A stretch of DNA of 64,000 bases from Gemmatimonadota bacterium (GTDB lineage: Bacteria; Latescibacterota; UBA2968; UBA8231): positions 1 to 64,000 of the forward strand of contig JABHDC010000118.1 in NCBI GenBank assembly GCA_018673255.1, given 5' to 3'. Shown here in pieces: positions 6,921 to 36,386 of this stretch. The position numbers were made by a program, and so were the translations under genes. The notes under the pieces are model-generated. The model was not told the DNA's origin. It did no database searches and saw only the letters and a program-made list of their open reading frames with translations. Position 1 is the first letter of the stretch, and every line of letters starts with the position of its first letter.

Positions 6921-6990
6921 TGGCTGGCCTCGTGTTGCCGGCCCCGAGCGAATGCTCGCGTGGCCAGAGTCCAGATCCGGAGATGCTGAA

Positions 6991-6995
6991 GGAGG
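6991..6995 (+). promoter_or_regulatory. Shine-Dalgarno GGAGG choosing the 7003 start
   Basis: GGAGG is one base before the ATG at 6997 and seven bases before the ATG at 7003. Only the latter is at a workable distance, and it also yields a signal peptide starting MVRMM. Confidence 0.7.
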
Positions 6996-7002
6996 TATGT
7001 CG

Positions 7003-8775: not shown

Positions 8776-8876
8776 TGCCGCTGGGAGCCTGTCCGAGTAT
8801 CCCAGGCTACGACCACGTCATTTCCTGTCAAAGCGAATACCCGGACAGGGCAATAGCAAGGGCGCTATGACCCGGC

Positions 8877-10031: not shown

Positions 10032-10124
10032 GTAGAACCCCTCTTCGTGGCTCTGGAATTGGGTGCGACTCAGTTCGGGTGAGGACGAAGCAGCCCATTC
10101 GCTGAAGCGGGTAGACGCAGAAGC

Positions 10125-11108: not shown

Positions 11109-11609
11109 GCGGCCTCCTTTTCAGCGGCCGCGAAGACTAGTGGCTGAAGGCCTGAGAGACAAATATGGCGGTTGGGATGCGCAGACTACCTGGACCGAGA
11201 TGACGGTATCGTCAACTCAATCAGGCGAAGACGTCGACGACGAAGCCCTTGCTCGGAATGGGAGGGCGGAACTCGGTATTGGCTGGTGGCGGGACACCGG
11301 TATCGATTCCCAGTGGGCGCACGTCGCCATTGCGCGGCACCCTTGCCGTCCGGTCTACCTCGGCAATACGAGGGGCTCGTGTTCCCACGGTAACGTCCAT
11401 CTTCGAGACTGGGACGATATGTCGGAAATCTGTGATCCGGGTGGCCATGCCGATGATTCGTACCAGTGGGCGACGGTGATCGATTGCAGTTGTCTGACGC
11501 GATAAATGCTACCGTCGCGGCTTGCCCCTCGTCAAGGCGGGTCAATCAGAGGCTACGACGGTGTCCAGAGTGCGCCATGGGCCCTGAAGCCGCGGACCTC
11601 GGGATTCGG
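11109..11609. other. Intergenic 501 bp, no convincing gene
   Basis: This lies between the cytochrome c start and the rhodanese stop. It should contain the cytochrome promoter. The only open frame of note is the 75-codon one at 11221-11448, listed separately with low confidence. Confidence 0.5.
11221..11448 (-). CDS. Questionable small ORF, 75 aa
   Basis: An open frame beginning ATG at 11448 and ending FVVDVFA-stop. The same frame stays open upstream to a TAG near 11505 without an earlier ATG or GTG. The composition (ATRITDFRHIVPVSKMDVTVG) looks more protein-like than the alternative frames here, but there is no clear ribosome-binding site and I recognise no family. It may be a genuine small protein, the remnant of a decayed gene, or chance. 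Confidence 0.25.
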   Translation of the reverse strand: MATRITDFRHIVPVSKMDVTVGTRAPRIAEVDRTARVPRNGDVRPLGIDTGVPPPANTEFRPPIPSKGFVVDVFA

Positions 11610-11963
11610 TCAGCCCAGCGTCTGCCGGGCGCGGCTGATGGAACCGAGATTGTGCACCTGCTCGTAACCGAGTCGCTTCAGCGTGCGTGCAGCCATAGCC
11701 GAACGCGTACCGCTGAGGCAATAGAGCAACACCGGTCGCTGCTGGTTCGGCAACTGTGCGCCGGCCTGCTCTTCGATCTGATCCAGAGGCAGATTCACAG
11801 AGCCTTTCAGATGGTCGCCGCGAAACTCGTCCGGTGAGCGCACATCAACGAGGTCGGCGCCCTCGGCCATCAGGCTCGTCGCATCTTCAGCGGAGATGAG
11901 AGAGCGGCGTCGCCACAAGTAGAAAAGAGCGGCCAGAGCGAGGAGTACCCAGATCCAGTCCAA
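11610..11963 (-). CDS. Rhodanese-like domain protein with N-terminal membrane anchor
   Basis: A 117-residue protein: one N-terminal hydrophobic helix (residues 3-17, then an Arg cluster) followed by a single rhodanese domain. The signatures are VDVRSPDEF (39-47) and the active-site loop YCLSGTRS with Cys82 as the persulfide-carrying nucleophile. The family moves sulfane sulfur to thiol or cyanide acceptors. Membrane anchoring is a common variant. It is 82 bases downstream of the enolase-superfamily gene on the same strand, but no functional link is evident. Confidence 0.9.
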   Translation of the reverse strand: MDWIWVLLALAALFYLWRRRSLISAEDATSLMAEGADLVDVRSPDEFRGDHLKGSVNLPLDQIEEQAGAQLPNQQRPVLLYCLSGTRSAMAARTLKRLGYEQVHNLGSISRARQTLG

Positions 11964-12045
11964 GGCAGTTTACCTCTGGAAATTGACGGTGGCATGACCG
12001 TCGTCAGATGAGAAACCATCAAAATACGAAAGACTGTATTCAGTG

Positions 12046-13287
12046 CTATGATGCGTAGCGCGCCACGACCGACTGCTCGCGCACCCGTGCCCGCTCCATC
12101 GCCTGGGGGAAACGGGGGTTCGGCAGCGTGCTCGAGCCTTCCACATAGGGGAAACTCGAGGCGGGGTCATCGATGACGGACATCCCGAAGCCGGGTGTCT
12201 CGCCCAGGGCAATCACACCATCTACGGCCCGCATGGGTTCCTTCATGAGACCATAACGCATGTCGTTCGGATACATGAAGAACTCACACAGGTGACCGGC
12301 GCTCGTGCCGGCGATCAGATGTGTATTGCACATCGTGCCCAGCGGTGTCTGCCAGTTGTGGGTGACCATCTTCGCGCCGTGTTCGGCTGCGTGCTGGGCG
12401 ATGCGCCAGTTTTCGGTGAGGCCTACGTGCACGCAGTCGGACTGCACGGCGTCGTAGATGCCCGCTTCGATCCAGGGCGCCGCCTCGGCGGCTGAGCGGA
12501 ATCGTTCGCCGCCCCACAACTGCACGCGGGGCATCAACTGTTTCAGTTTCAGGTAGTCGTCGAACTGCCCCGGTCCCTCGTCACCCATGGGTTGCTCGAA
12601 GAAGAGGAAGCCGAGTTCGTCGATGATGGGTGCAATCTCCTGACACTCCTCCCAGGTCCACGAGTCGTATCCCTTCTTCTCGAGGCCGAGGTGGAAGTCC
12701 GGGCCCACAGCCTCTCGCAACTGCCGGCAGATGTCACCCAATGACGATGCGGTGATCCGGGCCTCATCCCAGTCTGTCCCCGGACGCCACTTGAAGGTGT
12801 CGAAGCCCTGGGACTTGTAGTCGAGGGCCTCGGCGATCAATTCGTCGACGCCATAGGGTTGGCCGTCGCCGCGATCGTAGTAGGTCCACATGACGCCGCC
12901 GCTGGCGTACGTGCGACAGTTGCCGTCGACGGCCTCCTCACCTGCCAGCAGGCGATAGACCGGCTGTCCCTTCACCTGGCCGATGATATCCCAGCATGCC
13001 ACATCGACACCGGCCGGCAGGTCGAGGGTGTCGACGTCGAAGGGGTTCACACCCACCAGGTGTGAGTAGTCGACCTGCGCGGATCCAACGACGGGACCGA
13101 TCCCCATGATGCCTGCGTCGGTGAAGACCTCGACGAATCCGGCATCCATCTTCGTCAGTAGGATGGGCCCGCAGATGTGAATGTTGGAGCCGTCCGCCGG
13201 CTTGTAGCTCAGGGGCGTGACACGAATCTCGGTGATCCGGATCTGTTCACGACCGATGTCGCTCATCAACTGTGTCGCCGATTTCAT
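12046..13287 (-). CDS. Enolase-superfamily (mandelate racemase/muconate lactonizing) enzyme
   Basis: The frame is open to 13341, but AGGAAGG five bases before the ATG at 13287 favours that start (413 residues). A capping N-terminal domain (about 15-140) precedes the barrel. Barrel motifs: a Lys167-x-Arg pair where many members have KxK; carboxylates Glu203, Glu231 (FFEQP) and Glu261 (GGERF) at metal-ligand positions; and a His310 (MVTHNW) that may serve as the opposing base. Such enzymes abstract an alpha-proton of a carboxylate, typically dehydrating or epimerising sugar acids. This fits the uronate/glycan-lyase context. The exact acid-sugar substrate is unknown. Confidence 0.85.
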   Translation of the reverse strand: MKSATQLMSDIGREQIRITEIRVTPLSYKPADGSNIHICGPILLTKMDAGFVEVFTDAGIMGIGPVVGSAQVDYSHLVGVNPFDVDTLDLPAGVDVACWDIIGQVKGQPVYRLLAGEEAVDGNCRTYASGGVMWTYYDRGDGQPYGVDELIAEALDYKSQGFDTFKWRPGTDWDEARITASSLGDICRQLREAVGPDFHLGLEKKGYDSWTWEECQEIAPIIDELGFLFFEQPMGDEGPGQFDDYLKLKQLMPRVQLWGGERFRSAAEAAPWIEAGIYDAVQSDCVHVGLTENWRIAQHAAEHGAKMVTHNWQTPLGTMCNTHLIAGTSAGHLCEFFMYPNDMRYGLMKEPMRAVDGVIALGETPGFGMSVIDDPASSFPYVEGSSTLPNPRFPQAMERARVREQSVVARYAS

Positions 13288-13590
13288 CCAGGCCTTCCTG
13301 GCATCGTGGTGATATCCCTGTGGTGGACTGAAATCCGGCACGCCATCTTGCTGGAGAAGTCAGCCGGCTATCGCCGTCCCGGTATCCCAGGGGGCACACA
13401 TGAATAAGGTGTACGAGGGGCACTCTGGTCGAGTGCGAAGGGAAGATGGTTCGTGCACGAGTCGGGTCGACGCGCCGGCTGCGAGCTGACATATTGTGGC
13501 CCGAGAGACCTCGATGCATTCGAGCGTACTGACCCGCATACCAGAGGATGTGGGGTCAGCCTGAGACACAGATCCGATGATGGTTCAAAC
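13288..13590. other. Divergent intergenic region, 303 bp
   Basis: This separates the enolase-superfamily gene (minus) from ybaK (plus), so promoters for both should lie here. A seven-base inverted repeat (CTGACCC at 13529-13535, GGGTCAG at 13553-13559) sits 32 bases before the ybaK ATG and could form a leader hairpin. No gene seen. Confidence 0.45.
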
Positions 13591-23470: not shown

Positions 23471-23672
23471 GTCTCTCTCCTGGCGGCGTCGATGCCGCGG
23501 ATCATGCGATGGTCGCCGATACAGCTGCGGTGGCGTTATAAAGGCCGATCCCACCTGCCTTGGCAATGTTCGGTTGCCAGACGTGGGCTGACCGGTCCTG
23601 CGGGGCAGATCGTTCGCTGGTTGTCGACGCGCACAGTGTGCTGTATGCTGGCACGCCGAAGGGGTTCCTATC

Positions 23673-23678
23673 GAGGAG
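23673..23678 (+). promoter_or_regulatory. Shine-Dalgarno GAGGAG choosing a GTG start
   Basis: GAGGAG lies seven bases before the GTG at 23686, which starts the FAD-binding domain precisely. The earlier in-frame ATG codons would add 42 residues of unrelated sequence that overlaps the divergent promoter region. Confidence 0.65.
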
Positions 23679-23685
23679 TATCGGA

Positions 23686-25953
23686 GTGAAATGCACTGAA
23701 GATCGAAACGTCGACGTACTCGTTGCAGGCGGGGGGATGGCAGGTGTCTTCGCCGCCCTGGCCGCAGCTGGCGATGGTGCGTCTGTCGTGTTGATTGAAC
23801 CGAGCAATGTCCTTGGGGGGCAGGGGACGGCAGGCGGTGTGGCCGGATTCTGCGGCGACACACAGCGCGTCAACGACCCCTTCCGCCGGCTCGTTGAGCA
23901 GCTGTCTGCGCACGACAAGATCGCTCCCTACAATCCGCGTTCTGATCGGCGCGCCTACGATCTGGAAATCTGCGGGTTCTTCCTTCAGGAGATGGTGGCC
24001 AAGGCCGACGTCGACATCCTGCTTCATGCCCGCGTGCTGGATGCGGTGGCCGATGCGGGGCGCGTGAGTGATGTGCTGGTGAGCTGCGGATCGGAGGTCA
24101 TTGAGTTTCACCCCACCGTGGCCATCGATGCAACGGGAGATTGTGTCATCGCCCACAGGGCCGGCTTCCCCACAGTGCATGAGGGGGCCAACGTACAGCT
24201 GCCGATGAGTCTGTATTTCACACTCTGGGATACGGGCAAACCGGTCACCTCTTTCCTGCCGCCCGGATGCCCTACGTGGGACACGGACGACGACCTGCCC
24301 ATGACGACGTTACACGTCTTCGATTCGGGCAAGGTCGAGATCAAGATGAAGGTCGTCGGATTCGATGCGGCGAATGGCGAGAGTCTCTCCCAAGCGGAGA
24401 TCCACGCGCGCCGGCAGATGATGGGTCTCATCTATCACCTGCAGACGAAGGGGTATGGCGGCCGTGTGCTCGATTCCCACGAGCTGGCTGCCGTCTCGCG
24501 TCAGATCGGACAGCGCGAAGGCCGACGCATTGTCGGCGAGGTTGTGCTGACGGAAGAGGATGTCACGCACGCCGCAAGCTTTGAGGATGCCGTCGCCGTG
24601 GGAACCTACCACCTCGACTATCACTGGCCTGACAAGGTGCGACGTGCCGGCACGGGAATCACGACCATGGTCGAGCCCTATCACATCCCATTGCGCTCGC
24701 TGATTCCGAAGGGGGCGCGCAATCTGCTGGCCGTGGGGCGCTCTGCATCGGGAGACCAGATGGCGATGAGCTCCTTCCGCGTCCAGGCCACGTGTGCGCA
24801 GATGGGATTCGCGGCCGGCACGGTGGCTGCCGTCTGCAAGGCCCAAGGGGCGGATCTGACCACCGTGGACGTGTCCCAAGTGCAGCGCGCCATCGAGGCA
24901 GGAGGGCAATCGCTGGATCTGTCCGACTACGGCGATTACCTGCGTCACCAGATCCAGTCGCACGAGCACATCTTCGAGAAGACGGACGACTTCGCTTCGT
25001 GCCATGCGTCGAGTCTCGTGCTATTGTCGAATGGCGGCTTCCTGGTCGTGTGGTTTGGCGGCACCCAGGAGGGACGGGCGGACGTCGGCATCTGGGCCAG
25101 CGAACGTCGTGGCTGTGTGTGGTTGCCGCCGCGGTTGTTGGCACGGGTCCGAGATGTGGCGCACTGGAATCCGGTATTGCTGGGTGCGGGGCGTGGCAAC
25201 GTGCACCTGTTCTTCAAGGTCTCCGTCGAAGGGACGGGGCGTGATGGTCGCTTCGGCGTGAGTGAAGGATGGGAGACGTGGTGGATGTCATCGGTCGACG
25301 ATGGGGTGTCGTGGTCGGAGCCGCGGATCCTCGTGGAAGGTGACACCCAGGGGCGGGGTCCGGTGAAGGACAAGCCGATCGTGCTGGCCAGTGGCGCCTG
25401 GCTTGCCGGTGCATCGACGGAAACCCCGGAGGTGTGGGAGGTGTTCTTCGATCGCAGTGAAGATGAGGGGCTCACGTGGGAGCAATCGACCACCGTCGCC
25501 ATGGATCCATCCGTCTTCACCGGCAAAGGGGCGATTCAACCGACGGTGTGGGAGAGCGAACCGGGAAGGGTCCATGCCCTGGTGCGCACGACGGCTGGAT
25601 TTGTGGGCCGCACGGATTCGACCGACGACGGCCGGACCTGGTCGGAGCTGACGCTGACGGATCTGTCGAACAACAACAGTGGTCTGGATGCGGCGCGGCT
25701 GACGGATGGCAGGATTGCCCTCGTGTGCAATCCCATCGACTCGGGGCGTACGCCGCTGAGTGTGCTGATCTCGGATGACAATGGCACCACGTGGACTCGA
25801 CGCCTCGACCTGGAGACGGCGGCAGGGGAATACTCCTATCCCGCCATCATTCCCACAGCGGGAGGCATGGCGATCAGCTATACGTGGAATCGTGAGCGGA
25901 TCGCTTTCTGGCGGGGGTCTGTCGAAGCGATCCCGAAGATCGGCGCATCATGA
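23686..25953 (+). CDS. Fusion: FAD-dependent oxidoreductase + BNR/sialidase-like propeller
   Basis: 755 residues from GTG 23686. Residues about 8-430 are an FAD_oxidored-type flavoprotein: VLVAGGGMAG dinucleotide motif, an acidic LIEPSNVLGGQGTAGG segment, a GDCVIAH segment, and a C-terminal NLLAVGRSASGDQMA FAD contact. From about 440 onward a six-bladed BNR/Asp-box propeller follows (SSVDDGVSW, DDGRTW, SDDNGTTW), with a CHASSLVLL start typical of the sialidase-like BNR_2 group. The reading frame is continuous across the join. Both domains are common alone; the join is unusual. Its stop overlaps the ATG of the next gene, so the two are translationally coupled. Substrate unknown. Confidence 0.8.
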   Translation: MKCTEDRNVDVLVAGGGMAGVFAALAAAGDGASVVLIEPSNVLGGQGTAGGVAGFCGDTQRVNDPFRRLVEQLSAHDKIAPYNPRSDRRAYDLEICGFFLQEMVAKADVDILLHARVLDAVADAGRVSDVLVSCGSEVIEFHPTVAIDATGDCVIAHRAGFPTVHEGANVQLPMSLYFTLWDTGKPVTSFLPPGCPTWDTDDDLPMTTLHVFDSGKVEIKMKVVGFDAANGESLSQAEIHARRQMMGLIYHLQTKGYGGRVLDSHELAAVSRQIGQREGRRIVGEVVLTEEDVTHAASFEDAVAVGTYHLDYHWPDKVRRAGTGITTMVEPYHIPLRSLIPKGARNLLAVGRSASGDQMAMSSFRVQATCAQMGFAAGTVAAVCKAQGADLTTVDVSQVQRAIEAGGQSLDLSDYGDYLRHQIQSHEHIFEKTDDFASCHASSLVLLSNGGFLVVWFGGTQEGRADVGIWASERRGCVWLPPRLLARVRDVAHWNPVLLGAGRGNVHLFFKVSVEGTGRDGRFGVSEGWETWWMSSVDDGVSWSEPRILVEGDTQGRGPVKDKPIVLASGAWLAGASTETPEVWEVFFDRSEDEGLTWEQSTTVAMDPSVFTGKGAIQPTVWESEPGRVHALVRTTAGFVGRTDSTDDGRTWSELTLTDLSNNNSGLDAARLTDGRIALVCNPIDSGRTPLSVLISDDNGTTWTRRLDLETAAGEYSYPAIIPTAGGMAISYTWNRERIAFWRGSVEAIPKIGAS

Positions 25954-26789: not shown

Positions 26790-27689
26790 TTAGGCGGAGC
26801 CGCCTCCCGCATCTTCACCATCGAGTCGTCGCACCAGGCTGAGACCCGATCGGATCCACTCAGCATAACCGGGATGTTCACAATCGGTGCCATACACCTG
26901 GAGAGAGTCACTTTCTCCGAGTGTGCGGCGGGCCGAGTTGCCCGTGGCCTTGCGTAGATCGATGCGTGCCATGACGAGTCGCTCCTCGAAGGATCCCGCC
27001 TCATCCAGGGCATTGCCCGCGGGATCCACGATCATCGAGTTGCCATGGGAGGCGTTGAAGCGGTGCATGTTGTCGGCATCAGCCGGGGCGTTGGCCATGA
27101 CGGCATAACACAGATTCTCCGTGGCGCGTGAGATCTGCATGGAGCGGTAGCCGAGCAATTTGTGCTCTGCGGACAGACCCGACTCGTTGTTGGCGATGAA
27201 GACGATCCGAGCGCCGGCGGTCACGCCGAGTCGTGTCAGTTCGGGGTAACGCAGGTCGTGACAGATGATGGCTGTCGCTTCGACGCCACAGACGTTGAAG
27301 ATGACAGGTCCGCTGCCGGCGGCATACCAGGGTTCCCCGGCGCGCCAGGTCTTGGCGTATCGTCCCAATGGCCGGCCATCTCGATCGATGATGAGCAGAT
27401 CGTTGAAGACCTGTCCATCGCGTCGGCCTGTTGTCCCGACCAGGACAGCGATTGAGAGGTCTTCGGCCAACTGCCGGATGCGCTCCTCAGCGGTCACAAC
27501 CCATTCGAAATCGAGGGCATCCACACGTTCGGCATCGGGGTATCCCGTCAGGCAGCCTTCGTGGAAGAGGACCACATCGCAGCCGGCGGCCGCTGCTTCG
27601 TGAATGCGGCTCTCGATCTTGGCCAGATTCTGTGCCAGATCTGAGTTGGTGTCGATCTGGGCGGCTGCGACGACGAGTTCTTCTGTCAT
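26790..27689 (-). CDS. Carbon-nitrogen hydrolase (nitrilase superfamily) A
   Basis: The start at 27689 (MTEELVVAAAQ) is preferred over the upstream Met at 27722, because it begins the domain and sits seven bases after the upstream gene. 299 residues. The catalytic triad is visible: Glu in FHEGCLTGYPD, Lys in AKTWRAGEP and the Cys in IICHDLRYPE. Members hydrolyse amides, N-carbamoyl compounds or nitriles in the cytosol. The partner gene upstream encodes a second, divergent member, so the pair may act sequentially or as a heteromer. Confidence 0.9.
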   Translation of the reverse strand: MTEELVVAAAQIDTNSDLAQNLAKIESRIHEAAAAGCDVVLFHEGCLTGYPDAERVDALDFEWVVTAEERIRQLAEDLSIAVLVGTTGRRDGQVFNDLLIIDRDGRPLGRYAKTWRAGEPWYAAGSGPVIFNVCGVEATAIICHDLRYPELTRLGVTAGARIVFIANNESGLSAEHKLLGYRSMQISRATENLCYAVMANAPADADNMHRFNASHGNSMIVDPAGNALDEAGSFEERLVMARIDLRKATGNSARRTLGESDSLQVYGTDCEHPGYAEWIRSGLSLVRRLDGEDAGGGSA

Positions 27690-27696
27690 GGTGGCC

Positions 27697-28515
27697 TTAC
27701 TCACTATCGAGTTTCGGCGCATCGAAGGGCGCCTGCGCCGAGCGATGGTTGGTATCGGTCAGCGGGCCATACAGATCGGGTCGCCGATTCTCCAGGTGAT
27801 TGCCTTCGTGGACGAGGGCCAGATCGATGGTGTGGACGAGCACATCCGTCGCATTCGATTGCAGCTTCGCCTCCACCTTGCCCTGGGGATCGGTGATCAG
27901 GCTGACGTTGGGGTGGGTGAAGCAGATGAACATCTGATTCTCGTAGGACCGGGTCCGCATCCACCACTCATTGTCCTCGCCCCACATGCCATAGGTCGGC
28001 ATCAGGCAGATCTCGGCCCCATGGAGACGCAGTGTGCGGATCGACTCGGGCCAGCGCCGATCCGCACAGATGACCATGCCGACACGACCGATGTCCAGGT
28101 CAAAGGCATTGAGGTGCTCGCCGCGATGGAAGCGATGGTCATGACTCAGCAGATGGGTCTTGTGATAGGTGCCGACGATATCGCCCGAGGCGTCGATCAG
28201 CACGGCACAGTTGTAGAAGCCGCCATTCAGCTGTTCGGTGAACCCGAAGACGATGGCCGTGCTCTTCTGCTTCGCCATGTCGCGCAGATCCCCGATGCGT
28301 TCATCGTCGATGGCCAACGACACACCGGCGAAACGCTCCACGGTCCAGTCCTCTTCCGTGACGGCGTAACCATCCAGATAACACTCGGGCGTGATGAAGA
28401 TGTCCACGTCGCCACCGTGGCGGTCGAACTGGTCGCAGAAGACAGACCAGTTGCGTGTCGCATCCCACTTGGCGGGGACATCCTTCAGCATGCCGATGGT
28501 GACGGGTCGTTCCAT
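27697..28515 (-). CDS. Carbon-nitrogen hydrolase (nitrilase superfamily) B
   Basis: 272 residues with an intact triad: Glu in TPECYLDGY, Lys in YHKTHLL and Cys in VICADRRWPE. It lies seven bases upstream of copy A, in tandem on the minus strand. The two proteins differ at most positions around the triad, so this is not a recent duplication. The likely role is amide/carbamoyl hydrolysis of a nitrogen-containing catabolite. Confidence 0.9.
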   Translation of the reverse strand: MERPVTIGMLKDVPAKWDATRNWSVFCDQFDRHGGDVDIFITPECYLDGYAVTEEDWTVERFAGVSLAIDDERIGDLRDMAKQKSTAIVFGFTEQLNGGFYNCAVLIDASGDIVGTYHKTHLLSHDHRFHRGEHLNAFDLDIGRVGMVICADRRWPESIRTLRLHGAEICLMPTYGMWGEDNEWWMRTRSYENQMFICFTHPNVSLITDPQGKVEAKLQSNATDVLVHTIDLALVHEGNHLENRRPDLYGPLTDTNHRSAQAPFDAPKLDSE

Positions 28516-28759: not shown

Positions 28760-29745
28760 CTAGAAGCGGACGTCCGTCATCACGTACACCCAGAGCAGGT
28801 TGTCGTCCAGCCGACCGATCTCGGAAAAGCCGTCACCGGCATTGACGTAGGACAAGCCGGCCACCCATGTGGCGTTGTCGCTGTAGCGGTAACTCGCCGT
28901 CAGGTCGAGTTCCTCGCCGAGCCGGGCCTCCGACATTCCCTCATCGGCCATGACGGCGAAGGAGTGGAGGTCGGCGCCCACCTTCCATCCCGGCGCGGGT
29001 GAGAGCGTGCACCAATCATTGTCGCCGCTACATCCTCGCCAGCGCGCTCACCTGTCTGGTAGGCTGCCTCGACACGGTACGACAGGCCCGCCGCCTTGCC
29101 CGCCTTGCGGGCCCCGAGGGTCCACTGGTCCGTGGCGCTGCCGCTGGTGTTCTGCAGGGCGAAGAGCTGCGTCTGAGCCAATGCCGCCACCTGCGCATGC
29201 ACCCCCAGCAGGTGGGCGTCGTCAGTCTGTGTCGCGGCCGTCTCGTCTGCCAGGCGTATGGCCAGCAGGTCTGCGTCGATCCCGTCGGCGGCGTAGGAGG
29301 CCCGCACACCGTCGAAGGCGCGGCCCTGCTGGGCCCAGCCAACGGCGCCGATGAGACGCTGCCCACCCAGGGAGATCTCCTGGCGTCCGATTCTCAAATC
29401 GAGACCCGTGCCGGCCACCTCTCCGAACTCCACGTAGCCCTGGTGCAGGTCGAAATTGTCGGCCCGGAAGTCACCCAAAGTGTTCGTCTCTTCACCCCAG
29501 AGACGCACGTCCTGCAGTTGCACGAAGGCACGCACCCCGCCATCCAGATCGGCACCGGCATCGACGCGCACACGCATCGACGTGAAGGCGTCGTCGCTGC
29601 CGTTCCCCGCGTCGCGGAACTCGAAGCGCGGCCGAACCTGGCCGCTTATCTGGGGGCCAGCGGCCAGGGCCGAAGCCGCCGCGGTCAGGACGAGGAGAGC
29701 GCAGGGAACGAATCTGCGCAGGAGAGCTTGCTCGAAGGGCACCAT
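28760..29745 (-). pseudogene. Outer-membrane beta-barrel (Alginate_exp-like) porin, frameshifted and apparently deleted
   Basis: The first frame (from 29745, after AGGAG six bases upstream) gives a signal peptide ending ALAA, then QVRPRFEFRD and IGRQEISLGGQRLIG, hallmarks of Alginate_exp porins. It reads normally to about residue 250 (MIGA). From there the barrel continues in a different frame (LSPAPGWKVGADLHSF...) and ends in the classic terminal Phe (VYVMTDVRF) at the 28760 stop. The two parts add up to about 330 residues, short of the roughly 400-450 usual, so an internal segment seems lost at about 29000-29020. Unless it is an assembly join, the gene is broken. It sits divergently to nrfH. 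Confidence 0.8.
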
Positions 29746-29792: not shown

Positions 29793-29823
29793 GCTTAATT
29801 TGGACCCACATATCCAATTAAGC
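29793..29823. promoter_or_regulatory. Near-perfect inverted repeat between porin and nrfH (candidate operator)
   Basis: Left arm GCTTAATTTGGA (29793-29804), an eight-base centre, and right arm TCCAATTAAGC (29813-29823). The arms match in all 11 bases of the right arm with one extra T in the left. It lies in the AT-rich divergent region, about 56 bases before the nrfH start, where a regulator of nrfHA would bind. The Rrf2-type protein at 35952-36386 is a candidate binder, but this is inference; the sequence matches no site I know for certain. Confidence 0.6.
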
Positions 29824-29878
29824 AACGGCGTCCGTTGAGGGACGACAAGCCACATAGAAAGACCCGAGCGAGTTGCCC

Positions 29879-30409
29879 ATGAAGGCGGAGAGCATCCTGA
29901 AATTTTGCACGCTGGCGGCGGTGGTTGTGGCCGGGGTAATGGCAATTCACCTGGCCAGCGAATCCAAGGCCACTTCGTATCTCTCGAGTGATCCTGCCGC
30001 GTGCATCAACTGCCACGTCATGGAGTCCTATTACGCTTCCTGGCTGCGGAGTTCGCACGCGCAGCGCGCTACGTGCGTGGACTGCCACCTGCCGGCCGAT
30101 GACCACGTCGACATGCTTGTATCCAAGGCTCGCGACGGCTGGAATCACACCGTCGCCTTTACGCTGGACAGTTACAGCAAGCGGCTGCTCATCTCGGACG
30201 ACGGGGCTCGTCGTGTGCAGGAGAACTGCATCCGGTGCCATGGAGCCCAATCGCAATCCCTCGCCAGAGGGAGCGACGGCCGCTACGACTTCGGCAGCGA
30301 AACACTGGGGGACAGGAACTGCTGGGACTGCCACCGTCTCGTTCCGCACGGGAAGGTCCGCAGCATCAATTCCGCCCCCAATAATCTCAGTGTAAAATGG
30401 ACGCAGTGA
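29879..30409 (+). CDS. nrfH: NrfH tetrahaem quinol dehydrogenase subunit
   Basis: 176 residues from ATG 29879 (a TTG at 29873 is possible). One N-terminal membrane helix (residues 8-26) anchors a periplasmic domain with four CxxCH sites: CINCH (42-46), CVDCH (66-70), CIRCH (117-121) and CWDCH (148-152). This is the NapC/NirT-type small subunit of cytochrome c nitrite reductase, which takes electrons from menaquinol and passes them to NrfA. nrfA begins 15 bases after its stop. The size and four-haem count match NrfH. Confidence 0.94.
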   Translation: MKAESILKFCTLAAVVVAGVMAIHLASESKATSYLSSDPAACINCHVMESYYASWLRSSHAQRATCVDCHLPADDHVDMLVSKARDGWNHTVAFTLDSYSKRLLISDDGARRVQENCIRCHGAQSQSLARGSDGRYDFGSETLGDRNCWDCHRLVPHGKVRSINSAPNNLSVKWTQ

Positions 30410-30413
30410 AAGC

Positions 30414-30418
30414 AGGAG
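30414..30418 (+). promoter_or_regulatory. Shine-Dalgarno AGGAG choosing the nrfA start
   Basis: AGGAG sits six bases before the ATG at 30425 and directly abuts the ATG at 30419, which favours 30425 as the start of NrfA. Confidence 0.65.
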
Positions 30419-30424
30419 ATGGGC

Positions 30425-31936
30425 ATGAATCGGACAAAAGTCGTACTCGGAATAGCGCTGCTGGCGATCGCCTGCATGGCCTACTTGCTGCTCTCTATCG
30501 GCACCAAGAAGCAGGAACAGGTGCTGCTGCGAGCCGCCCCGGTCATCAAGGCCGAGGGAGTCGAGGCCAAGAGCGATGTCTGGGGAACGCATTATCCTCG
30601 ACAGCGTGATACCTGGGAACGCACGAAAAACAGCAGCGAGATCGAGGACCTGGTGGACAGGTACCCGCAGTTGGCCATCCTGTGGGCCGGCTACGGCTTC
30701 GCCAAGGATTATAACGCGCCCCGCGGCCACGCCTACGCGCTGCAGAGCAACCGAAACACCCTGCGCACCGGCGCACCCACGGATGCGGCGACCGGGCCCA
30801 TGCCCATGGCCTGCTGGACCTGCAAGTCGCCCGACGTCGCTCGTCTCATCGCGGAGGAAGGCGAGCTGGAGTATTTCACCGGCAAGTGGGCGCGTGGCGG
30901 TTCCGAGATCGTCAACCCCATCGGTTGCGCCGACTGCCACAATAGCCAGACCAGCCAGCTGGCTATTTCTCGTCCGCACTTGTTGAGGGGCTGGGAAGCC
31001 AGCGGTCGCAGCGTCGATGAGATCACCTTTCAGGACATGCGGTCGCTCGCCTGCGCGCAGTGCCATTCGGAGTACTACTTCGCGAAGACCCCGTACACCG
31101 ATGACAACGGCGAAGAGAAAGTTGCCGCTGTCGTGACCTTCCCCTGGGCCGAGGGACTCGCGGCCGAGGATATGGAGGATTACTACAACGAGATGGGGTT
31201 CAAGGACTGGACCAACAAGTTGAGCAAAGCGCCCATGCTCAAGGCTCAGCACCCCGGCTATGAGATCTTCACCACCGGCGTGCACTACCAGCGCGGTCTT
31301 GCCTGCGCCGACTGCCACATGCCCTATGTGCAGGAGGGCGGCGTCAAATACTCGTCGCACCACATCCAGAGTCCGCTCAACGACATCACCAATACCTGCT
31401 TGACCTGTCATCGTCAGAGCGAGGCGGAGTTTCGGTCGATCGTCGCCGAAAAGCTGGCCCGCAAGAACCAGCTCAACGTCATGACGATGAACAGCCTGGC
31501 CGTCGCGCACCTGACGGCCGCGAAGGCCTGGGAGGTCGGCGCGACCGAGGCTGAAATGGCGCCCATCCTTGCGAAGATCCGCTCGGCGCAGTGGCTCTGG
31601 GACTACTCCATCGCGAGCCATGGGTCGTTCTTCCACGCGCCCGGCGAGACCCTGCGCCTCCTGGGGGTGGCCAACGACAAGGCGATGGACGCCCGCCTCG
31701 ATCTCACTACCGTGCTGGCCCAGCACGATGTGATCGATTATCAGGTACCGGATTTCTCCGCCAAGGACCGGGCCCAGCAGCTCGCCGGCCTCGACATGCC
31801 CCAGCTGATCGAGGACAAGCTGAACTTCAAGAGGGGTCTCATGTCTGAATGGCTCGAAGAAGCCAAGGCCGAGGGACGGCTGACCGACGAATTCGTGACG
31901 GGCCTGGAGGACCACGCGTCCTACTCGCTGCACTGA
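30425..31936 (+). CDS. nrfA: Ammonia-forming cytochrome c nitrite reductase NrfA
   Basis: 503 residues from ATG 30425. An N-terminal helix (6-24) is the signal/anchor. The pentahaem layout is complete: active-site CWTCK (130-134) with the lysine-ligated haem, then CADCH (168-172), CAQCH (210-214), CADCH (294-298) and CLTCH (325-329). Conserved surroundings are present: HSEYYF with the calcium/active-site Glu-Tyr, HPGYE, and HYQRGLACADCH. It reduces nitrite to ammonium with six electrons in the periplasm and also detoxifies NO and hydroxylamine. Maturation of the CX2CK haem needs a dedicated lyase; the CcsBA gene 700 bases downstream is the obvious candidate. Confidence 0.96.
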   Translation: MNRTKVVLGIALLAIACMAYLLLSIGTKKQEQVLLRAAPVIKAEGVEAKSDVWGTHYPRQRDTWERTKNSSEIEDLVDRYPQLAILWAGYGFAKDYNAPRGHAYALQSNRNTLRTGAPTDAATGPMPMACWTCKSPDVARLIAEEGELEYFTGKWARGGSEIVNPIGCADCHNSQTSQLAISRPHLLRGWEASGRSVDEITFQDMRSLACAQCHSEYYFAKTPYTDDNGEEKVAAVVTFPWAEGLAAEDMEDYYNEMGFKDWTNKLSKAPMLKAQHPGYEIFTTGVHYQRGLACADCHMPYVQEGGVKYSSHHIQSPLNDITNTCLTCHRQSEAEFRSIVAEKLARKNQLNVMTMNSLAVAHLTAAKAWEVGATEAEMAPILAKIRSAQWLWDYSIASHGSFFHAPGETLRLLGVANDKAMDARLDLTTVLAQHDVIDYQVPDFSAKDRAQQLAGLDMPQLIEDKLNFKRGLMSEWLEEAKAEGRLTDEFVTGLEDHASYSLH

Positions 31937-31962
31937 GACCGCACGATCTGAGCCAACCGAAA

Positions 31963-31991
31963 GAGGGCCGGCGACATGTTCGCCGGCCCTC
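31963..31991. terminator. Strong hairpin between convergent nrfA and azurin genes
   Basis: A perfect 12-base stem GAGGGCCGGCGA / TCGCCGGCCCTC (31963-31974 and 31980-31991) with loop CATGT, 27 bases after the nrfA stop and downstream of the azurin gene from the other side. There is no long T-run, but the position suits a bidirectional terminator. Confidence 0.75.
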
Positions 31992-32048
31992 ACTTCTCGT
32001 TCGGCGGTGATGTATTCGGGTCAGTAGATCACAACGGTGATCGCGTTG

Positions 32049-32510
32049 TCAGCGGACGACGAAATCGCCCCGCATCGCCAGGTAGTGCCCTGGGAAGCTG
32101 CAGATGAATTTGTAGGTTCCCGGCGCAGGCGCTTCGAAGGTAATCGTGTCGGTCTCCCCGCCGCCGAGCATTCGAGTGTGGGCGATGACCTGGTCCTGCT
32201 TCCTGGGGGGGATATGGTCCGTCGTCCCGGCCCTCGCCGCGGCCCGGGCGAAGCCGTCCAGGTCGACACCCTGCTGCAGCAGCACGAAGTTGTGTCCCAT
32301 GGCACCTACCGACATCCTGCCCCTGTGCTCGAGCGTGAGGATGACCCGGGCGCCGGCGGGAACCTCGATGGTCGCCCGGTCGAACTTCATCTGGTCGCTG
32401 CCGGCAATGGTCACGCGGACCGAATTGCCGCCCTGGTCGTTCCCACCGCAGCCCACCAGAAGGAGCACGGCGACGGCGAGCGAGACGATGGGCATGACGG
32501 TGGGTTTCAT
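32049..32510 (-). CDS. Azurin (type 1 copper protein), lipoprotein form
   Basis: The start at 32510 follows GGAGGAAGG; 153 residues. A lipobox ends LLLVGC (Cys21), so the protein is probably lipid-anchored in the periplasm. The copper ligands match azurin: His73 in MGHNF, Cys137 in FICSFPGH, His142 and Met146 (HYLAM). It carries single electrons between periplasmic redox partners such as cytochromes c, nitrite reductases or peroxidases. It converges with nrfA and diverges from the cytochrome-maturation gene, so it probably belongs to the same respiratory module. Whether it feeds NrfA is unknown. Confidence 0.93.
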   Translation of the reverse strand: MKPTVMPIVSLAVAVLLLVGCGGNDQGGNSVRVTIAGSDQMKFDRATIEVPAGARVILTLEHRGRMSVGAMGHNFVLLQQGVDLDGFARAAARAGTTDHIPPRKQDQVIAHTRMLGGGETDTITFEAPAPGTYKFICSFPGHYLAMRGDFVVR

Positions 32511-32523
32511 CGATCCTTCCTCC

Positions 32524-32579
32524 GGGTCCGGGCGAGGTCTGCTGGCTCCCCGGCGAGAAGCCGGGCTTCTGCCGGACCC
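32524..32579. repeat. Nested inverted repeats in the azurin/ccsBA divergent region
   Basis: An outer eight-base pair, GGGTCCGG (32524-32531) and CCGGACCC (32572-32579), encloses an inner hairpin CCCGGC / GCCGGG (32549-32554 and 32560-32565). They lie between the start of the azurin gene and ccsBA, where a shared regulator or an RNA structure in a leader could act. Function unknown. Confidence 0.5.
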
Positions 32580-32640
32580 ATGGTAGCGGCACAGGTCACG
32601 CAGACGCAAGTTGGGTGACCGTCGATATGGATCCCGCGCA

Positions 32641-35600
32641 ATGAGCCGTCGTCATCTTGACCCAAACGAGCGCAAACACGTGCAGAGACTGTTCCGACAT
32701 CCCCTGTTCGCGGCCCTCTCGGACCTGCGGCTCGCGGCCATCCTCCTCGCGGTCCTCGCCATCACCGCAGCTGTCGGCACCTGGATCGAATCTCACTTCG
32801 CCAACCTCGGCTCCATCGAGACGGGCCAGGTCGCGGTCTTCGACCTGGTCTACGACGCGCCCTGGTTCAACGCGCTCCTCGGGCTACTCTTCTCGAATCT
32901 GCTGGCGAACCTGGTCCGACGGCTTCAGGGCGGCCGCCAGGCATCCGGCCCCCTGCTGGTGCACGTGGGCGTCCTCGTGATCCTGGCGGGTGCGGGTGTG
33001 ACCCGCTGGTGCGGCTACGAGGGCCTGATGCACATCCGAGAGGGTGAAGCCAGCAGCGTTCTGACCTCGAAGGAGGTTTTCGCCGTGGTGGCCGACGACG
33101 AGGACGAGGCGCCTCTGCCCGTCCGCCTCTACCGGCCCGGGGCGCAGACACACCGGCAACGCGTCGAGCTGGGCGGCGAAACCCTCACCCTGGGCGTAAC
33201 CGAGTACTGGCCTCGCTTTGCCCGGCGCCTCGAGCCAGGGGACGGCGGCATCGCGGGTGTCGAGCTGACCGCCACCGGCGCCCACGCCCCGGCCGTCCAC
33301 ACGCTCTATCAGGGTGACGAGACGCGGATCGGACACGTCGCGGTGCGCTTCCACACCGACGATCTGCCGGCCGTCGCTGACGGTGAGCCGGCCGTCGCCG
33401 ACGGTTCCAGCGCCCCTCTCGACTTCGCCCGGCGCGACGACGCGGTCGTAATGCGCGCCTCATTCTCTCTCACTGTCGGGTCCCGACAGGGCGAAGACGA
33501 CCGAAAGGTGCCGGCGGGCGACGTCGTGACCGTGGAGACGGGACAGCTGATCCGGGGCGGGGACGGTTTCGAGATCATGGTCAACGACGTCGCCGCCTCG
33601 CTCGTCGAAGGTGGGGGTCCGAGCACCGATCCCGACGCACCGGAGGCGGCGCGGATCACCGTGGAGAAGGACGGCGAGCGGGTTGACGCCATCTGCGTCC
33701 AGGGAGACAAGGCGAAGACTGTCGAGCTGAGCGGTCAGCGGTATCGCCTACGGTATGGGCCGGTGCTCAGTGAGCTGCCCTACGAGATCGCCCTCGAGGA
33801 CTTCGTCCTCGAGACGTACCCCGGCAGCGACAACCCCGCCAGCTATGAGAGCCACGTGTTGCTCAGCGACCCGGAGCACGGGATTTCGGGCCGGCCGGTG
33901 CGTATCTGGATGAACCATCCTCTGACCCACCGCGGCACCAAGCACTTTCAGTCGAGCTACGACCCTGATCGCCAGGGCACGATTCTCTCGGTCAACCGGG
34001 ACCCCGGAAAGCTCCCCACCTACATCGGCTACACCGTCATCTCTCTCGGCTTCCTGGTGATCCTCGTGCAGACCGTCATCCGGCGCGTGATCACCTTGCG
34101 GGCCCTGGCCGGGGCGGCGGCTCTGATCGCCACGTGGGCGCTCGCGGCGGCGGGGAGCGCAGAGGCGCAGGAACCCCGGGCCGGCGGCGGGCCCCCGGGC
34201 CCACCCCGTGTGATCCTCTCGCCCGCGAACCTGGAGTCGGCATCGCGGCTCATCGTGCAGGACTACCACGGGCGCATGAAGCCCTTCGATACCCTCGCCC
34301 GCGAGATGGCGATGAAGATCACCAGGAGCACCCGCTTCGAGGGCCGCGAACCGGCGGCGATTTTCCTGGGCCTCGCGATGCACCCCGAGGCGTGGTATGA
34401 TCATCCGGTGGTCTTCGTGAAGAACCCGGGGGTGCAGAAACTGCTCGGCGTCGACCACTCGGTTCGCCACGTACCGCTGTCCTCGCTCCTGCAGGAGAGC
34501 GGTTACCGGCTGCGGGACGTCGTCGGCGAGGCGCATCGCACTCCCTCGTACCGGCGCGACAAGACCCAGCAGAAACTCATCGTCTTCGACGAGCGGGTAC
34601 ACCTCTTTTTTGGGGCGTTACAGGGCAACTTCCTGCGGATCTTCCCTGTTCCCGACGATCCCGGAAACACCTGGCAGACCATCGAGAAGGTCCTCGAAAC
34701 CCTCCCTCCTCACGACCCGCGCGGCGGCGAGTTCAGAGTCGCTGCCGGCACCCTCTTCGAGGGACTCCTGGCCGGCGATGATGTCCGCATCGGCGAGGGG
34801 CTGCGGCGGGTGCACGAGCTGCAGCGGCGTTACGGCGCCGCCGTCATCCCCACGCAGCTGCGGATCGACGCGGAACTGATGCTCAACCGGACCCGCCCGT
34901 TTCTACTGTCCACCGTGCCGTACCTGCTCGGCTTCGTGGTCCTGATCGTCGCCTTCTTTGTGGGGCTGCTGAGCCGTCACGGGGGTGTCTGGTCCTGGCG
35001 CAGCCCGCTCTACCTGCTGGGCATGCTGGCGTTCCTGGCCGGTTTCGGGCTGCACCTCTGGGGCTTCGTCCTGCGCTGGATCGCCTCTGCGCGCGGGCCA
35101 CTGAGCAATGGCCACGAGTCGCTGCTCTGGGTGGCGCTGACGGTGGCGCTGGCGGGCGTGCTCTTCGAACTGATCAGCCGGACCGCCGCCGTAGGCGCCC
35201 TGGCCTCGTTGCTGACAGCGGTGACGCTGGGCGTGTCGATGCTGGGCACCTTCGATCCCTCCATCGGTCCCCTGAGACCCGTGCTGGCCTCCTACTGGCT
35301 CAATATCCACGTCACCGTCATCACTGCGGGATACGGCTTCCTGGGTCTCTCCTGCCTGCTCGGGTTGCTCACCATGGTGCTCTTCCTCGTCGACTGGGGG
35401 CGGCCGAGGCCGGCCACGGTCCGCGCCGTCGGCCTTCTCGACACGCTGAACGTGGACGTGATGGTTGCCGGCCTCGGCCTGCTCACGGTGGGCACGCTGC
35501 TGGGTGGCGTATGGGCCAACGAGAGCTGGGGGCGCTACTGGGGCTGGGACCCCAAGGAGACCTGGGCGCTGGTGTCGATCCTGCTCTATGCCATGATCCT

Positions 35601-35880
35601 GCACCTGCGCTGGATCCCCGGGCTCGCCAACCCCTTTGTGCAGGCGGCAGGATCCTTCCTGGCCATCTGGTCCATCGTCATGACCTACTTCGGAGTGAAC
35701 TACCTTCTGATGGGCATGCACAGCTACGCCGCGGGCGACAAGGTCGCCATCCCGTTGTGGGCCACAGTCTCTGGCCTGCTCTCCATCGGGTTCTGCTCTG
35801 TCGTCTACCGGGCTTGGTCGGGCCGGCGGAATTCGTGGCGGGGCGACGTCCCTGCAGGTGGGGTCTCGCCGACGAGTTGA
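32641..35880 (+). CDS. Fused CcsB-CcsA (ResB-ResC) cytochrome c haem lyase, candidate NrfI
   Basis: 1079 residues from ATG 32641. The N-terminal ResB/CcsB half has membrane helices near residues 25-45 and 75-105, a large periplasmic domain, and a helix near 460. A periplasmic linker follows (about 500-740). The C-terminal CcsA half has eight or so helices, with the haem-binding WWD signature WGRYWGWDP (963-971) and flanking histidines in GHESLLW, NIHVTVI and GMHSYA. Such system II proteins export haem and ligate it to CxxCH proteins. In Wolinella the homologous NrfI ligates the CX2CK haem of NrfA, and its gene sits with nrfHA. The same pairing here supports that specialised role, though general c-type maturation is equally possible. 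Confidence 0.92.
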   Translation: MSRRHLDPNERKHVQRLFRHPLFAALSDLRLAAILLAVLAITAAVGTWIESHFANLGSIETGQVAVFDLVYDAPWFNALLGLLFSNLLANLVRRLQGGRQASGPLLVHVGVLVILAGAGVTRWCGYEGLMHIREGEASSVLTSKEVFAVVADDEDEAPLPVRLYRPGAQTHRQRVELGGETLTLGVTEYWPRFARRLEPGDGGIAGVELTATGAHAPAVHTLYQGDETRIGHVAVRFHTDDLPAVADGEPAVADGSSAPLDFARRDDAVVMRASFSLTVGSRQGEDDRKVPAGDVVTVETGQLIRGGDGFEIMVNDVAASLVEGGGPSTDPDAPEAARITVEKDGERVDAICVQGDKAKTVELSGQRYRLRYGPVLSELPYEIALEDFVLETYPGSDNPASYESHVLLSDPEHGISGRPVRIWMNHPLTHRGTKHFQSSYDPDRQGTILSVNRDPGKLPTYIGYTVISLGFLVILVQTVIRRVITLRALAGAAALIATWALAAAGSAEAQEPRAGGGPPGPPRVILSPANLESASRLIVQDYHGRMKPFDTLAREMAMKITRSTRFEGREPAAIFLGLAMHPEAWYDHPVVFVKNPGVQKLLGVDHSVRHVPLSSLLQESGYRLRDVVGEAHRTPSYRRDKTQQKLIVFDERVHLFFGALQGNFLRIFPVPDDPGNTWQTIEKVLETLPPHDPRGGEFRVAAGTLFEGLLAGDDVRIGEGLRRVHELQRRYGAAVIPTQLRIDAELMLNRTRPFLLSTVPYLLGFVVLIVAFFVGLLSRHGGVWSWRSPLYLLGMLAFLAGFGLHLWGFVLRWIASARGPLSNGHESLLWVALTVALAGVLFELISRTAAVGALASLLTAVTLGVSMLGTFDPSIGPLRPVLASYWLNIHVTVITAGYGFLGLSCLLGLLTMVLFLVDWGRPRPATVRAVGLLDTLNVDVMVAGLGLLTVGTLLGGVWANESWGRYWGWDPKETWALVSILLYAMILHLRWIPGLANPFVQAAGSFLAIWSIVMTYFGVNYLLMGMHSYAAGDKVAIPLWATVSGLLSIGFCSVVYRAWSGRRNSWRGDVPAGGVSPTS

Positions 35881-35893
35881 CGAGGATCTGAGG

Positions 35894-35913
35894 CCGGTGC
35901 CCTTCGGCACCGG
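35894..35913 (+). terminator. Hairpin after ccsBA
   Basis: CCGGTGCC, loop CTTC, GGCACCGG: a perfect eight-base stem 13 bases beyond the ccsBA stop, without a T-run. It may partly separate ccsBA from the Rrf2 gene. Confidence 0.6.
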
Positions 35914-35951
35914 AGGCTCATGCACGAAGTTTCGGCCCGGAAAGCCATCAC

Positions 35952-36386
35952 ATGCTGTCACAGACCGCAGAATACGCTCTACGAGCCGTCGTATTCCTCG
36001 CAGAGACTTCACCCGCGCTGCGCACGAACCAGCAGATTGCCGACGGCACGCAGGTGCCGTCGAGCTACCTGTCAAAGGTGCTGCAGGGCCTGCAGCGTGC
36101 GGGGGTGGTGTTAACACTGCGCGGCAAAGGGGGTGGGTCCCGGCTCACTCGCGACGCTGCCGACATCACCGCCCTCGAGGTCGTCAACGCCGTCGACCCG
36201 GTCCGACGCATCGACAGCTGTCCCCTCGGGCTGCCGCGGCACGCTGGCCAATTGTGTCCATTGCACCGCAAGCTGGACGATGCACTGGCGACGCTCGAGG
36301 CGAGTCTTGCGTCGACGCCAATGCGCGAGATGCTCGACAACGACGGCGGAGATTCGTTGTGTCAGATCGCCGGGGTCGATCCGTAG
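35952..36386 (+). CDS. Rrf2-family transcriptional regulator (NsrR/IscR relative)
   Basis: 144 residues. The start MLSQTAEYALRAV is the Rrf2 signature. A winged helix-turn-helix occupies about 10-70, with recognition helix SSYLSKVLQ and wing RGKGGG. The sensing loop has Cys90 (DSCPLGL) and Cys102 (LCPLHRKL), with a further Cys137; the middle Cys of the NsrR three-Cys pattern is absent. The pattern matches the common CPLGL/LCPLH subgroup, some of which respond to NO or redox via Fe-S or thiols. Its place 70 bases after ccsBA and near nrfHA makes it a likely local regulator of nitrite/NO metabolism. Confidence 0.92.
   Translation: MLSQTAEYALRAVVFLAETSPALRTNQQIADGTQVPSSYLSKVLQGLQRAGVVLTLRGKGGGSRLTRDAADITALEVVNAVDPVRRIDSCPLGLPRHAGQLCPLHRKLDDALATLEASLASTPMREMLDNDGGDSLCQIAGVDP

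What the first reader, a model, noticed from the sequence alone, without database searches (positions are those of the whole stretch)
29793..36386. nrfHA with an adjacent fused CcsBA, azurin and Rrf2 regulator in an otherwise carbohydrate-catabolic region
NrfA has a CX2CK active-site motif, which in Wolinella needs the dedicated CcsBA-type lyase NrfI. Here a 1079-residue CcsBA lies just downstream with its WWD motif intact. An azurin lipoprotein and an Rrf2 protein complete the block. Pairing azurin with NrfHA is unusual and may mean a copper-protein branch into the nitrite/NO pathway.
Basis: partly seen in the sequence, partly recalled or inferred. Interest (0 to 1): 0.72.

Follow-up and report, generated by a model that had tools for sequence, protein, structure and literature searches.

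The report
Nitrite reductase island with own assembler
A bacterium carries a compact, apparently laterally acquired set of genes for turning nitrite into ammonia, which comes with its own haem-attaching enzyme, a probable nitric-oxide-type switch and, unusually, a copper protein of unknown role.

Summary
The genes are real: nrfH, nrfA (one CWTCK and four CXXCH sites), a fused CcsBA with its catalytic residues, and rrf2, all on +. The azurin is on the minus strand behind a hairpin shared with nrfA, so this is not one operon. The order nrfH-nrfA-azurin(-)-ccsBA recurs in relative G001 (no rrf2). G002 has ccsBA-nrfHA, with no azurin or rrf2 nearby. G001 also has System I (CcmABCEFH) and G002 a separate, distant CcsA, so the nrf-linked CcsBA looks like a dedicated NrfI-like haem lyase travelling with nrfHA. 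The window Rrf2's nearest held relatives sit divergent from norCBQD in two of three genomes. G002's norC-rrf2 gap and the window's nrfH promoter share a TTGGAC-N6-RTCCAA palindrome; G001 and G002 nrf promoters carry FNR/HcpR-type boxes instead. An nrfHA-ccsBA-porin operon is published for Bacteroides, so this is a new variant: azurin added, regulator apparently swapped. The azurin's partner is unknown and no copper branch is shown. A 2025 review calls CXXCK maturation outside Wolinella unknown for System II; this locus makes it testable.

The parts
28760..29745 (-). Alginate-export-type porin gene, broken: frame changes at about 29.01-29.03 kb; the tail reads in another frame to a stop at 28760
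   Evidence: PF13372 E 3.4e-20 on 28900-29745; three-frame reading; a homologue (31% over 178 aa) lies directly upstream of nrfH in L001; an alginate-export gene lies in the Parabacteroides nrf cluster
29793..29823 (.). Inverted repeat GCTTAATTTGGACCCACATATCCAATTAAGC, core TTGGAC-N6-ATCCAA at 29800-29817; proposed Rrf2 operator of nrfHA (and of the divergent porin)
   Evidence: Only site with at most 1 mismatch to TTGGAC-N6-GTCCAA in 64 kb (about 0.5 expected for the R form); the same palindrome, exact, in G002's norC-rrf2 gap
29879..30409 (+). nrfH, tetrahaem quinol dehydrogenase, 176 aa
   Evidence: TIGR03153 above cut-off; PDB 2j7a_C E 2.6e-6; 68% to L001, 66% to L002
30419..31936 (+). [quoted passage not shown]
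   Evidence: NF008339 above cut-off; PDB 1fs9 E 1.4e-177
31963..31991 (.). 12-pair hairpin between convergent nrfA and azurin, terminator-like on both strands
   Evidence: 5 such sites in 8 kb against 3.5 in shuffles, so the scan alone is no proof; a similar hairpin in L001 between nrfA and azurin
32049..32510 (-). Azurin, putative lipoprotein, 153 aa
   Evidence: PF00127 E 6.7e-14; TIGR02695 98.5 bits, cut-off 105.1; four Cu ligands conserved
32641..35880 (+). Fused CcsBA cytochrome c synthetase, 1079 aa, proposed dedicated (NrfI-like) lyase
   Evidence: PF05140 + PF01578; PDB 7s9y E 5e-155; key residues conserved; tree
35952..36386 (+). Rrf2-family regulator, 144 aa; C90, H97, C102, H105
   Evidence: TIGR00738 98.2 bits vs 73.3; residues; nearest held kin at norCBQD in 2 of 3 genomes

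Best explanation
A laterally acquired, self-sufficient nitrite-ammonification module. NrfH takes electrons from quinol and NrfA reduces nitrite to ammonia. The neighbouring CcsBA is a dedicated System II synthetase that attaches haem to NrfA's CWTCK (and perhaps all nrf haems), so the recipient's own maturation system need not recognise that site. The Rrf2 protein is an NO/nitrite-type sensor that acts on nrfHA through the TTGGAC-N6-RTCCAA palindrome 56-86 bp before the nrfH start, in place of the FNR/HcpR-type boxes seen in relatives. The azurin is an add-on with its own transcription unit, probably a periplasmic electron carrier or copper/NO buffer, not a subunit of the pathway. Shown: genes, residues, linkage, trees, shared palindrome, second maturation systems in the relatives. 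Inferred: transfer, haem-site specificity, operator binding, the signal, the azurin's role.
For: Same order in L001 and a ccsBA-nrfHA variant in L002. G001 holds CcmA-type/B/C/E/F/H besides this CcsBA; G002 holds a separate CcsA (34%) and ResB. The three nrf-linked CcsBAs sit in a 100/99 clade of 6 rows in a 53-row tree. NrfA of window, G001 and G002 fall in one 13-row clade (SH-aLRT 100), while the other NrfAs of those phyla (8 and 3 rows) lie across a 100 branch; RecQ of the window is only 46% and 45% identical to those of G001 and G002 (best in their phyla 51% and 48%). Rrf2 kin (47% and 49%) flank norCBQD in G002 and G055 (NorB best PDB match 3o0r, E 6.5e-117). The exact palindrome occurs once in the 4.2-Mb G002 genome, in the norC-rrf2 gap; a site with at most 1 mismatch occurs once in the 64-kb window, in the 133-bp porin-nrfH gap. 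FNR/HcpR-type boxes before the nrf genes in L001 (7980) and L002 (9353), no exact one in the window. Published nrfHA-ccsBA-porin operon BT1414-1418 (PMC10434189, passages).
Against: rrf2 and the palindrome are missing at the L001 and L002 nrf loci. No operator in the azurin-ccsBA or ccsBA-rrf2 gaps (best 6 and 5 mismatches of 12). G054's Rrf2 (51%, the nearest) is not beside nor; the G055 and G054 sites are weak (3 mismatches; as good in 59 and 90 of 1000 resamples). About 0.5 site as good as the window's is expected per 64 kb by chance, so the weight lies in its place. Motif and support share two sites, so their 0 of 1000 scores are not independent. At 1 mismatch the genomes other than G002 show 5 sites against 2 for the reversed control, and 6 of 7 sites in all have no evident link to NO or nrf genes. 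Counting Parabacteroides, nrf-linkage of CcsBA needs 2 changes on the tree. Transfer rests on MAG binning and one housekeeping control. No whole genome is held for the window. Kern 2010 (as reported in PMC12285233): engineered CXXCK motifs were not haemylated by NrfI, so the motif alone is not enough.
Confidence: 0.64

Rival explanations
1. The CcsBA is the organism's general cytochrome c synthetase that happens to lie beside nrfHA and matures all c-type cytochromes.
For: No whole genome is held for the window, so no second system can be shown there. The clade nests among about 1150-aa CcsBAs (one source names Krumholzibacteriia) whose gene neighbours are unknown. The key residues are of the common kind.
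Against: Both relatives with DNA carry another system, and the gene keeps company with nrfHA in all three loci despite rearrangement.
Confidence: 0.22
2. The azurin is a true redox partner: it feeds electrons to, or drains them from, NrfHA or an NO-reducing enzyme, so the locus is a copper-linked nitrite/NO branch.
For: Azurin-nrf linkage in window and L001, and by equal contig lengths in two more (P0122/P0243 on 329466; P0125/P0002 on 22815). The four linked azurins lie in one 100/99 clade of 14 rows in a 60-row tree. Rrf2 kin flank cNOR genes, and cNOR can take electrons from azurin (recalled).
Against: Opposite strand, hairpin between; L002 has nrfHA and ccsBA without it; NrfH already supplies electrons from quinol; the linked azurins are not a clade of their own (3 changes, 53 of 500 shuffles as low); no nor, nirK/nirS or nos family among the 19 window proteins scanned with Pfam (the other ORFs were only looked over).
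Confidence: 0.15
3. Ordinary nrfHA-ccsBA-porin cluster of the Bacteroidota kind that picked up unrelated neighbours (azurin, rrf2) with no functional link.
For: The nrfHA-resB-ccsA-porin-Crp/Fnr arrangement is annotated in Parabacteroides and published for B. thetaiotaomicron. rrf2 is not conserved at the locus.
Against: The azurin recurs at the same place in L001, and the nrfH promoter carries the palindrome found at G002's norC-rrf2 gap.
Confidence: 0.26

Closest known systems
nrfHAIJ of Wolinella succinogenes, with lyase NrfI
   Same: nrfHA plus a fused CcsBA beside it; CXXCK NrfA; best PDB match of NrfA is 1fs9, recalled as Wolinella
   Different: No nrfJ recognised; ccsBA set apart by a reversed azurin; Rrf2 gene nearby in place of Nss-type control (PMC12285233 table); NrfI sequence not available for a tree
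nrfHA-ccsB-ccsA-alginate export operon of Bacteroides thetaiotaomicron (BT1414-1418) and the like cluster of Parabacteroides distasonis
   Same: nrfHA, own CcsB and CcsA, alginate-export porin, a regulator next door; a second, fused CcsBA elsewhere in the same P. distasonis strain
   Different: CcsB and CcsA are separate and only distantly related (CcsA 32% over 210 aa); regulator is Crp-like; no azurin annotated in the 15-kb P. distasonis stretch
E. coli nrf operon with NrfEFG
   Same: Dedicated haem attachment to CXXCK (PMC6976685 passage)
   Different: CcmF/NrfE-type lyase and NrfB/CD electron route (recalled), neither recognised here
NsrR (Rrf2 family NO sensor)
   Same: Rrf2 family; two of three nearest kin lie by NO reductase genes
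   Different: 51.2 bits against NsrR cut-off 182; Cys at 90, 102, 137; palindrome TTGGAC-N6-RTCCAA, not gATGyAT-N5-ATrCATc

Membership tests
NrfI-type dedicated haem lyase | ResB-CcsA fusion with WWD and four histidines | tested here: met
NrfI-type dedicated haem lyase | Encoded with nrfHA | tested here: met
   Window, L001, L002; in the window an azurin on the other strand lies between
NrfI-type dedicated haem lyase | Host has another, general maturation system | tested here: inconclusive
   Met in G001 (Ccm) and G002 (CcsA C71, ResB C13); not testable for the window's own genome
NrfI-type dedicated haem lyase | Common clade with Wolinella NrfI | not tested
   NrfI sequence not reached; the Helicobacter CcsBA piece (7s9y) falls outside the clade
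NrfI-type dedicated haem lyase | Attaches haem to CXXCK | not testable with these tools
   Needs bench work
NrfA (CXXCK class) | Five haem sites, one CXXCK; family score over cut-off | tested here: met
NrfH | Four CXXCH; TIGR03153 over cut-off | tested here: met
   155.8 vs 134.2 bits; four CXXCH
Azurin | Type 1 copper ligands His, Cys, His, Met | tested here: met
Azurin | TIGR02695 over its cut-off | tested here: not met
   98.5 vs 105.1 bits, so azurin-like at family level
NsrR | NsrR equivalog score over cut-off | tested here: not met
   51.2 vs 182 bits
NsrR | Operator gATGyAT-N5-ATrCATc | tested here: inconclusive
   The palindrome found differs (consensus from PMC1274295); the NsrR consensus itself was not scanned for
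Rrf2 superfamily | TIGR00738 over cut-off | tested here: met
   98.2 vs 73.3 bits

The most novel reading that the evidence does not exclude
The locus is a mobile nitrite/NO module in which azurin is a real redox partner of NrfHA or of an NO reductase, which would to my knowledge be the first copper-protein link to ammonia-forming nitrite reduction, and in which an NO-reductase-type Rrf2 regulator has captured nrfHA by acquiring its operator.
Probability: 0.12. Interest if true: 0.68.

Novelty: new variant of a known kind. Interest (0 to 1): 0.48.

Why it matters
The 2025 review of which I read passages (PMC12285233) says that NrfI of W. succinogenes is the only confirmed System II protein for CXXCK and that it is unknown how other such organisms manage. 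This locus and its relatives give ready candidates: CcsBAs tied to nrfHA in genomes that have another maturation system, one of them System I. They also suggest that a nitrite reductase can cross phyla because its haem lyase travels with it, and they give a concrete, testable operator for an Rrf2 subgroup near NO reductase and Nrf genes.

Tried and rejected
Rejected: one nrf operon including azurin (opposite strand, hairpin). Rejected: Rrf2 as a scored NsrR (score, cysteines, different palindrome). Rejected: close kinship of the window with G001 or G002 (RecQ 46% and 45%). Led nowhere: own-genome search (none held); tRNA and Rfam scans (no hits); sigma-70 scan (2 sites against 0.7 expected, none at the nrfH promoter); the other 6 of 7 one-mismatch palindromes in G001, G002, G054 and G055 (L119, L120, L122-L125), none with an evident link; the Prevotella record (no annotation). 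In one search my nrfH query was one base out of frame; its two nrfH rows are void and were replaced. The first CcsBA tree held rows in wrong frames and a hand label of P0001 and P0002 as nrf-linked; it was replaced and is used only for residue counts. The NrfA tree stopped on a naming error; one search is used. Literature: searches with azurin + NrfHA, azurin + nrfA + gene cluster + Rrf2, azurin + DNRA + nrfH + synteny and Rrf2 + nrfHA listed no paper whose title, abstract start or passages read pair azurin with nrfHA in one locus. PMC13228040 (passages) notes azurin enriched in a Capnocytophaga clade of a genus where most species have nrfA and nrfH, without telling the loci. I saw listings and passages only, in an open-licence library.
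Full report
Anatomy. The window holds nrfH (29879-30409) and nrfA (30419-31936) on +, a minus-strand azurin (32049-32510), ccsBA (32641-35880) and rrf2 (35952-36386) on +. nrfA and azurin converge on a 12-pair hairpin that scores as terminator-like on both strands (31963-31991; the scan found 5 such sites in 8 kb against 3.5 in shuffles); a similar hairpin stands there in L001. The azurin and ccsBA diverge from a 130-bp gap. Upstream of nrfH, divergent, is an alginate-export-type porin (PF13372) whose frame changes at about 29.01-29.03 kb and whose tail ends at 28760; whether this is decay or an assembly error I cannot tell. The flanks hold, among the ORFs scanned with Pfam, a sulfatase, heparinase II/III-like, creatininase and DHDPS-family genes and RecQ.

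Residues. NrfA has CWTCK at 132 and four CXXCH; its best solved relative is 1fs9 (E 1.4e-177), recalled as Wolinella. CcsBA keeps the WWD segment and histidines 108, 890, 988 and 1027; in 71 aligned rows these four columns hold only H or gaps (H in 60, 67, 69 and 69, which has a few misframed rows). Best solved relative 7s9y (E 5e-155). The azurin keeps all four copper ligands; 59 or 60 of 60 rows share each.

Relatives. A genome-contig scan with NrfA gave 5 loci; three are distant (29-44%) and two close. L001 (genome G001) has nrfH (68%), nrfA (80%), azurin reversed (68%) and ccsBA (57% and 71% in two pieces) in the same order, with a porin homologue just upstream of nrfH and no rrf2. L002 (G002, not among the 47 genomes listed for G001's phylum) has ccsBA (64%), nrfH (66%), nrfA (78%), and no azurin, porin or rrf2 in its 21.5 kb. 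Equal longest-contig lengths in the protein lists link an azurin with NrfA (329466) and an azurin with CcsBA (22815) (each list shows the best 120 only); for those I have no DNA. Among 47 genomes of G001's phylum, 9 have NrfA and only G001 has this azurin. Azurin was not sought in the rest of G002.

Is the CcsBA dedicated? G001 has, besides this CcsBA, a CcmA-type ABC protein, CcmB, CcmC-size PF01578 protein, CcmE, CcmF and CcmH on contig C10. G002 has a separate CcsA on C71 (34%) and a ResB on C13. G007 and G008, of G001's phylum and without a NrfA match, likewise have CcmF- and CcmC-size PF01578 hits and a CcsBA next to ORFs with several CXXCH motifs (the full Ccm set was checked by Pfam only in G001). 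In a 53-row tree of the CcsA domain the three nrf-linked CcsBAs and P0001-P0003 form a clade (100/99). G002's other CcsA, the Parabacteroides fused CcsBA and the Helicobacter one lie elsewhere. The Parabacteroides nrf-linked CcsA is a very long branch that does not join them: the four nrf-linked rows need 2 changes on the tree (35 of 500 shuffles as low). Wolinella NrfI was not available. So the dedicated role is supported by company and by redundancy, not by kinship with NrfI.

Lateral movement. In a 53-row NrfA tree (quick, SH-aLRT only) window, G001 and G002 sit in a 13-row clade (100) next to Desulfobacterota sequences. The other 8 NrfAs of G001's phylum and 3 of G002's lie across a 100 branch. 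The window's RecQ is 46% identical to that of G001 and 45% to that of G002; the best in those phyla are 51% and 48%. This fits transfer of the module among phyla, if the two MAGs are binned rightly; RecQ is the only control.

Regulation. Of 7 genomes searched, G054, G055 and G002 hold near-full-length relatives of the window's Rrf2 (51%, 49%, 47%); G001's best is weak (E 5e-5). In G002 and G055, but not in G054, that gene is divergent from norC, norB, norQ, norD (G002's set checked). The porin-nrfH gap has TTGGACCCACATATCCAA inside a 31-bp inverted repeat; G002's norC-rrf2 gap has TTGGACTAGAATGTCCAA. The nonamer AAWTTGGAC occurs once each in the window, L117 (G055) and L118 (G002), always in these gaps, and not in the 7 other loci scanned, L116 of G054 among them. 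With the pattern drawn from these sites, the exact form is unique in G002's 4.2 Mb and the window site is the only one with at most 1 mismatch in 64 kb. Controls: about 0.5 match as good is expected by chance per 64 kb, so the evidence is its place in a 133-bp gap; at 1 mismatch five genomes show 7 sites (G002 2, G055 2, G001 2, G054 1, G053 0) against 2 for the reversed control, and six of the 7 have no evident link. G055 and G054 upstream sites are weak (3 mismatches). By contrast TTGATGTGGGTCAA (L001 7980, 121 bp before the likely porin start at 8114; L001 has another such box at 5161, away from nrf) and TTGACACAGGTCAA (L002 9353, the only one in 21.5 kb) stand before the nrf genes there, and no exact such box occurs in the window. 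HcpR's motif wyTTGACnnnnGTCAArw and its predicted control of nrfHA in Geobacter are in PMC1274295 (passages). So the window's nrfHA seems to have passed from CRP/FNR-type to Rrf2-type control. The signal (NO or nitrite) is inferred from the company of norCBQD.

Azurin. The four linked azurins fall in one 100/99 clade of 14 rows (60-row tree), though not in a clade of their own (3 changes); the other ten list longest contigs of only 1.3-5.6 kb, so their neighbours cannot be told. Its role is open: electron carrier, or copper or NO buffering. Nothing here shows a copper branch.

Known background. Passages of PMC12285233: NrfI in nrfHAIJ serves CXXCK; it is the only confirmed System II protein for it, and other organisms' solution is unknown. 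Passages of PMC10434189: BT1414-1418 is an operon of nrfAH, ccsA, ccsB and an alginate export gene, predicted to be under a Crp-like regulator. Annotation of P. distasonis shows the same set. Passage of PMC3534657: an Rrf2 gene stands near nrfHA and a nos cluster in Melioribacter. Passages of PMC5701242: in Desulfovibrio desulfuricans nrfHA answers to NrfS-NrfR, and an Rrf2 gene is induced by nitrate. Passage of PMC8805035: System II genes beside other cytochrome genes in genomes with System I. Hence: a new variant of a known kind.

Noticed in passing
window 23560-25953: One ORF joins a FAD-dependent oxidoreductase (PF12831) to a BNR/sialidase-like domain (PF13088), an odd fusion.
   Followed up: no
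window 26790-27722 and 27697-28515: Two overlapping minus-strand ORFs; the second matches carbon-nitrogen hydrolase families, all below cut-off, and the first looks alike by eye.
   Followed up: no
L100 (G008:C65) 3046-13393: A CcsBA split in two ORFs directly after four ORFs with 6, 4, 5 and 19 CXXCH motifs, in a genome that also has CcmF/CcmC-size PF01578 hits: perhaps another dedicated lyase for a multihaem complex.
   Followed up: partly
L118 (G002:C11) 4445-9520: norC-norB-norQ-norD divergent from an Rrf2 gene with a perfect TTGGAC-N6-GTCCAA palindrome in the gap; a candidate NO-responsive Rrf2 subgroup distinct from NsrR.
   Followed up: partly
window 28760-29745: Porin gene with a frame change; shorter than the 476-aa homologous ORF in L001.
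   Followed up: partly
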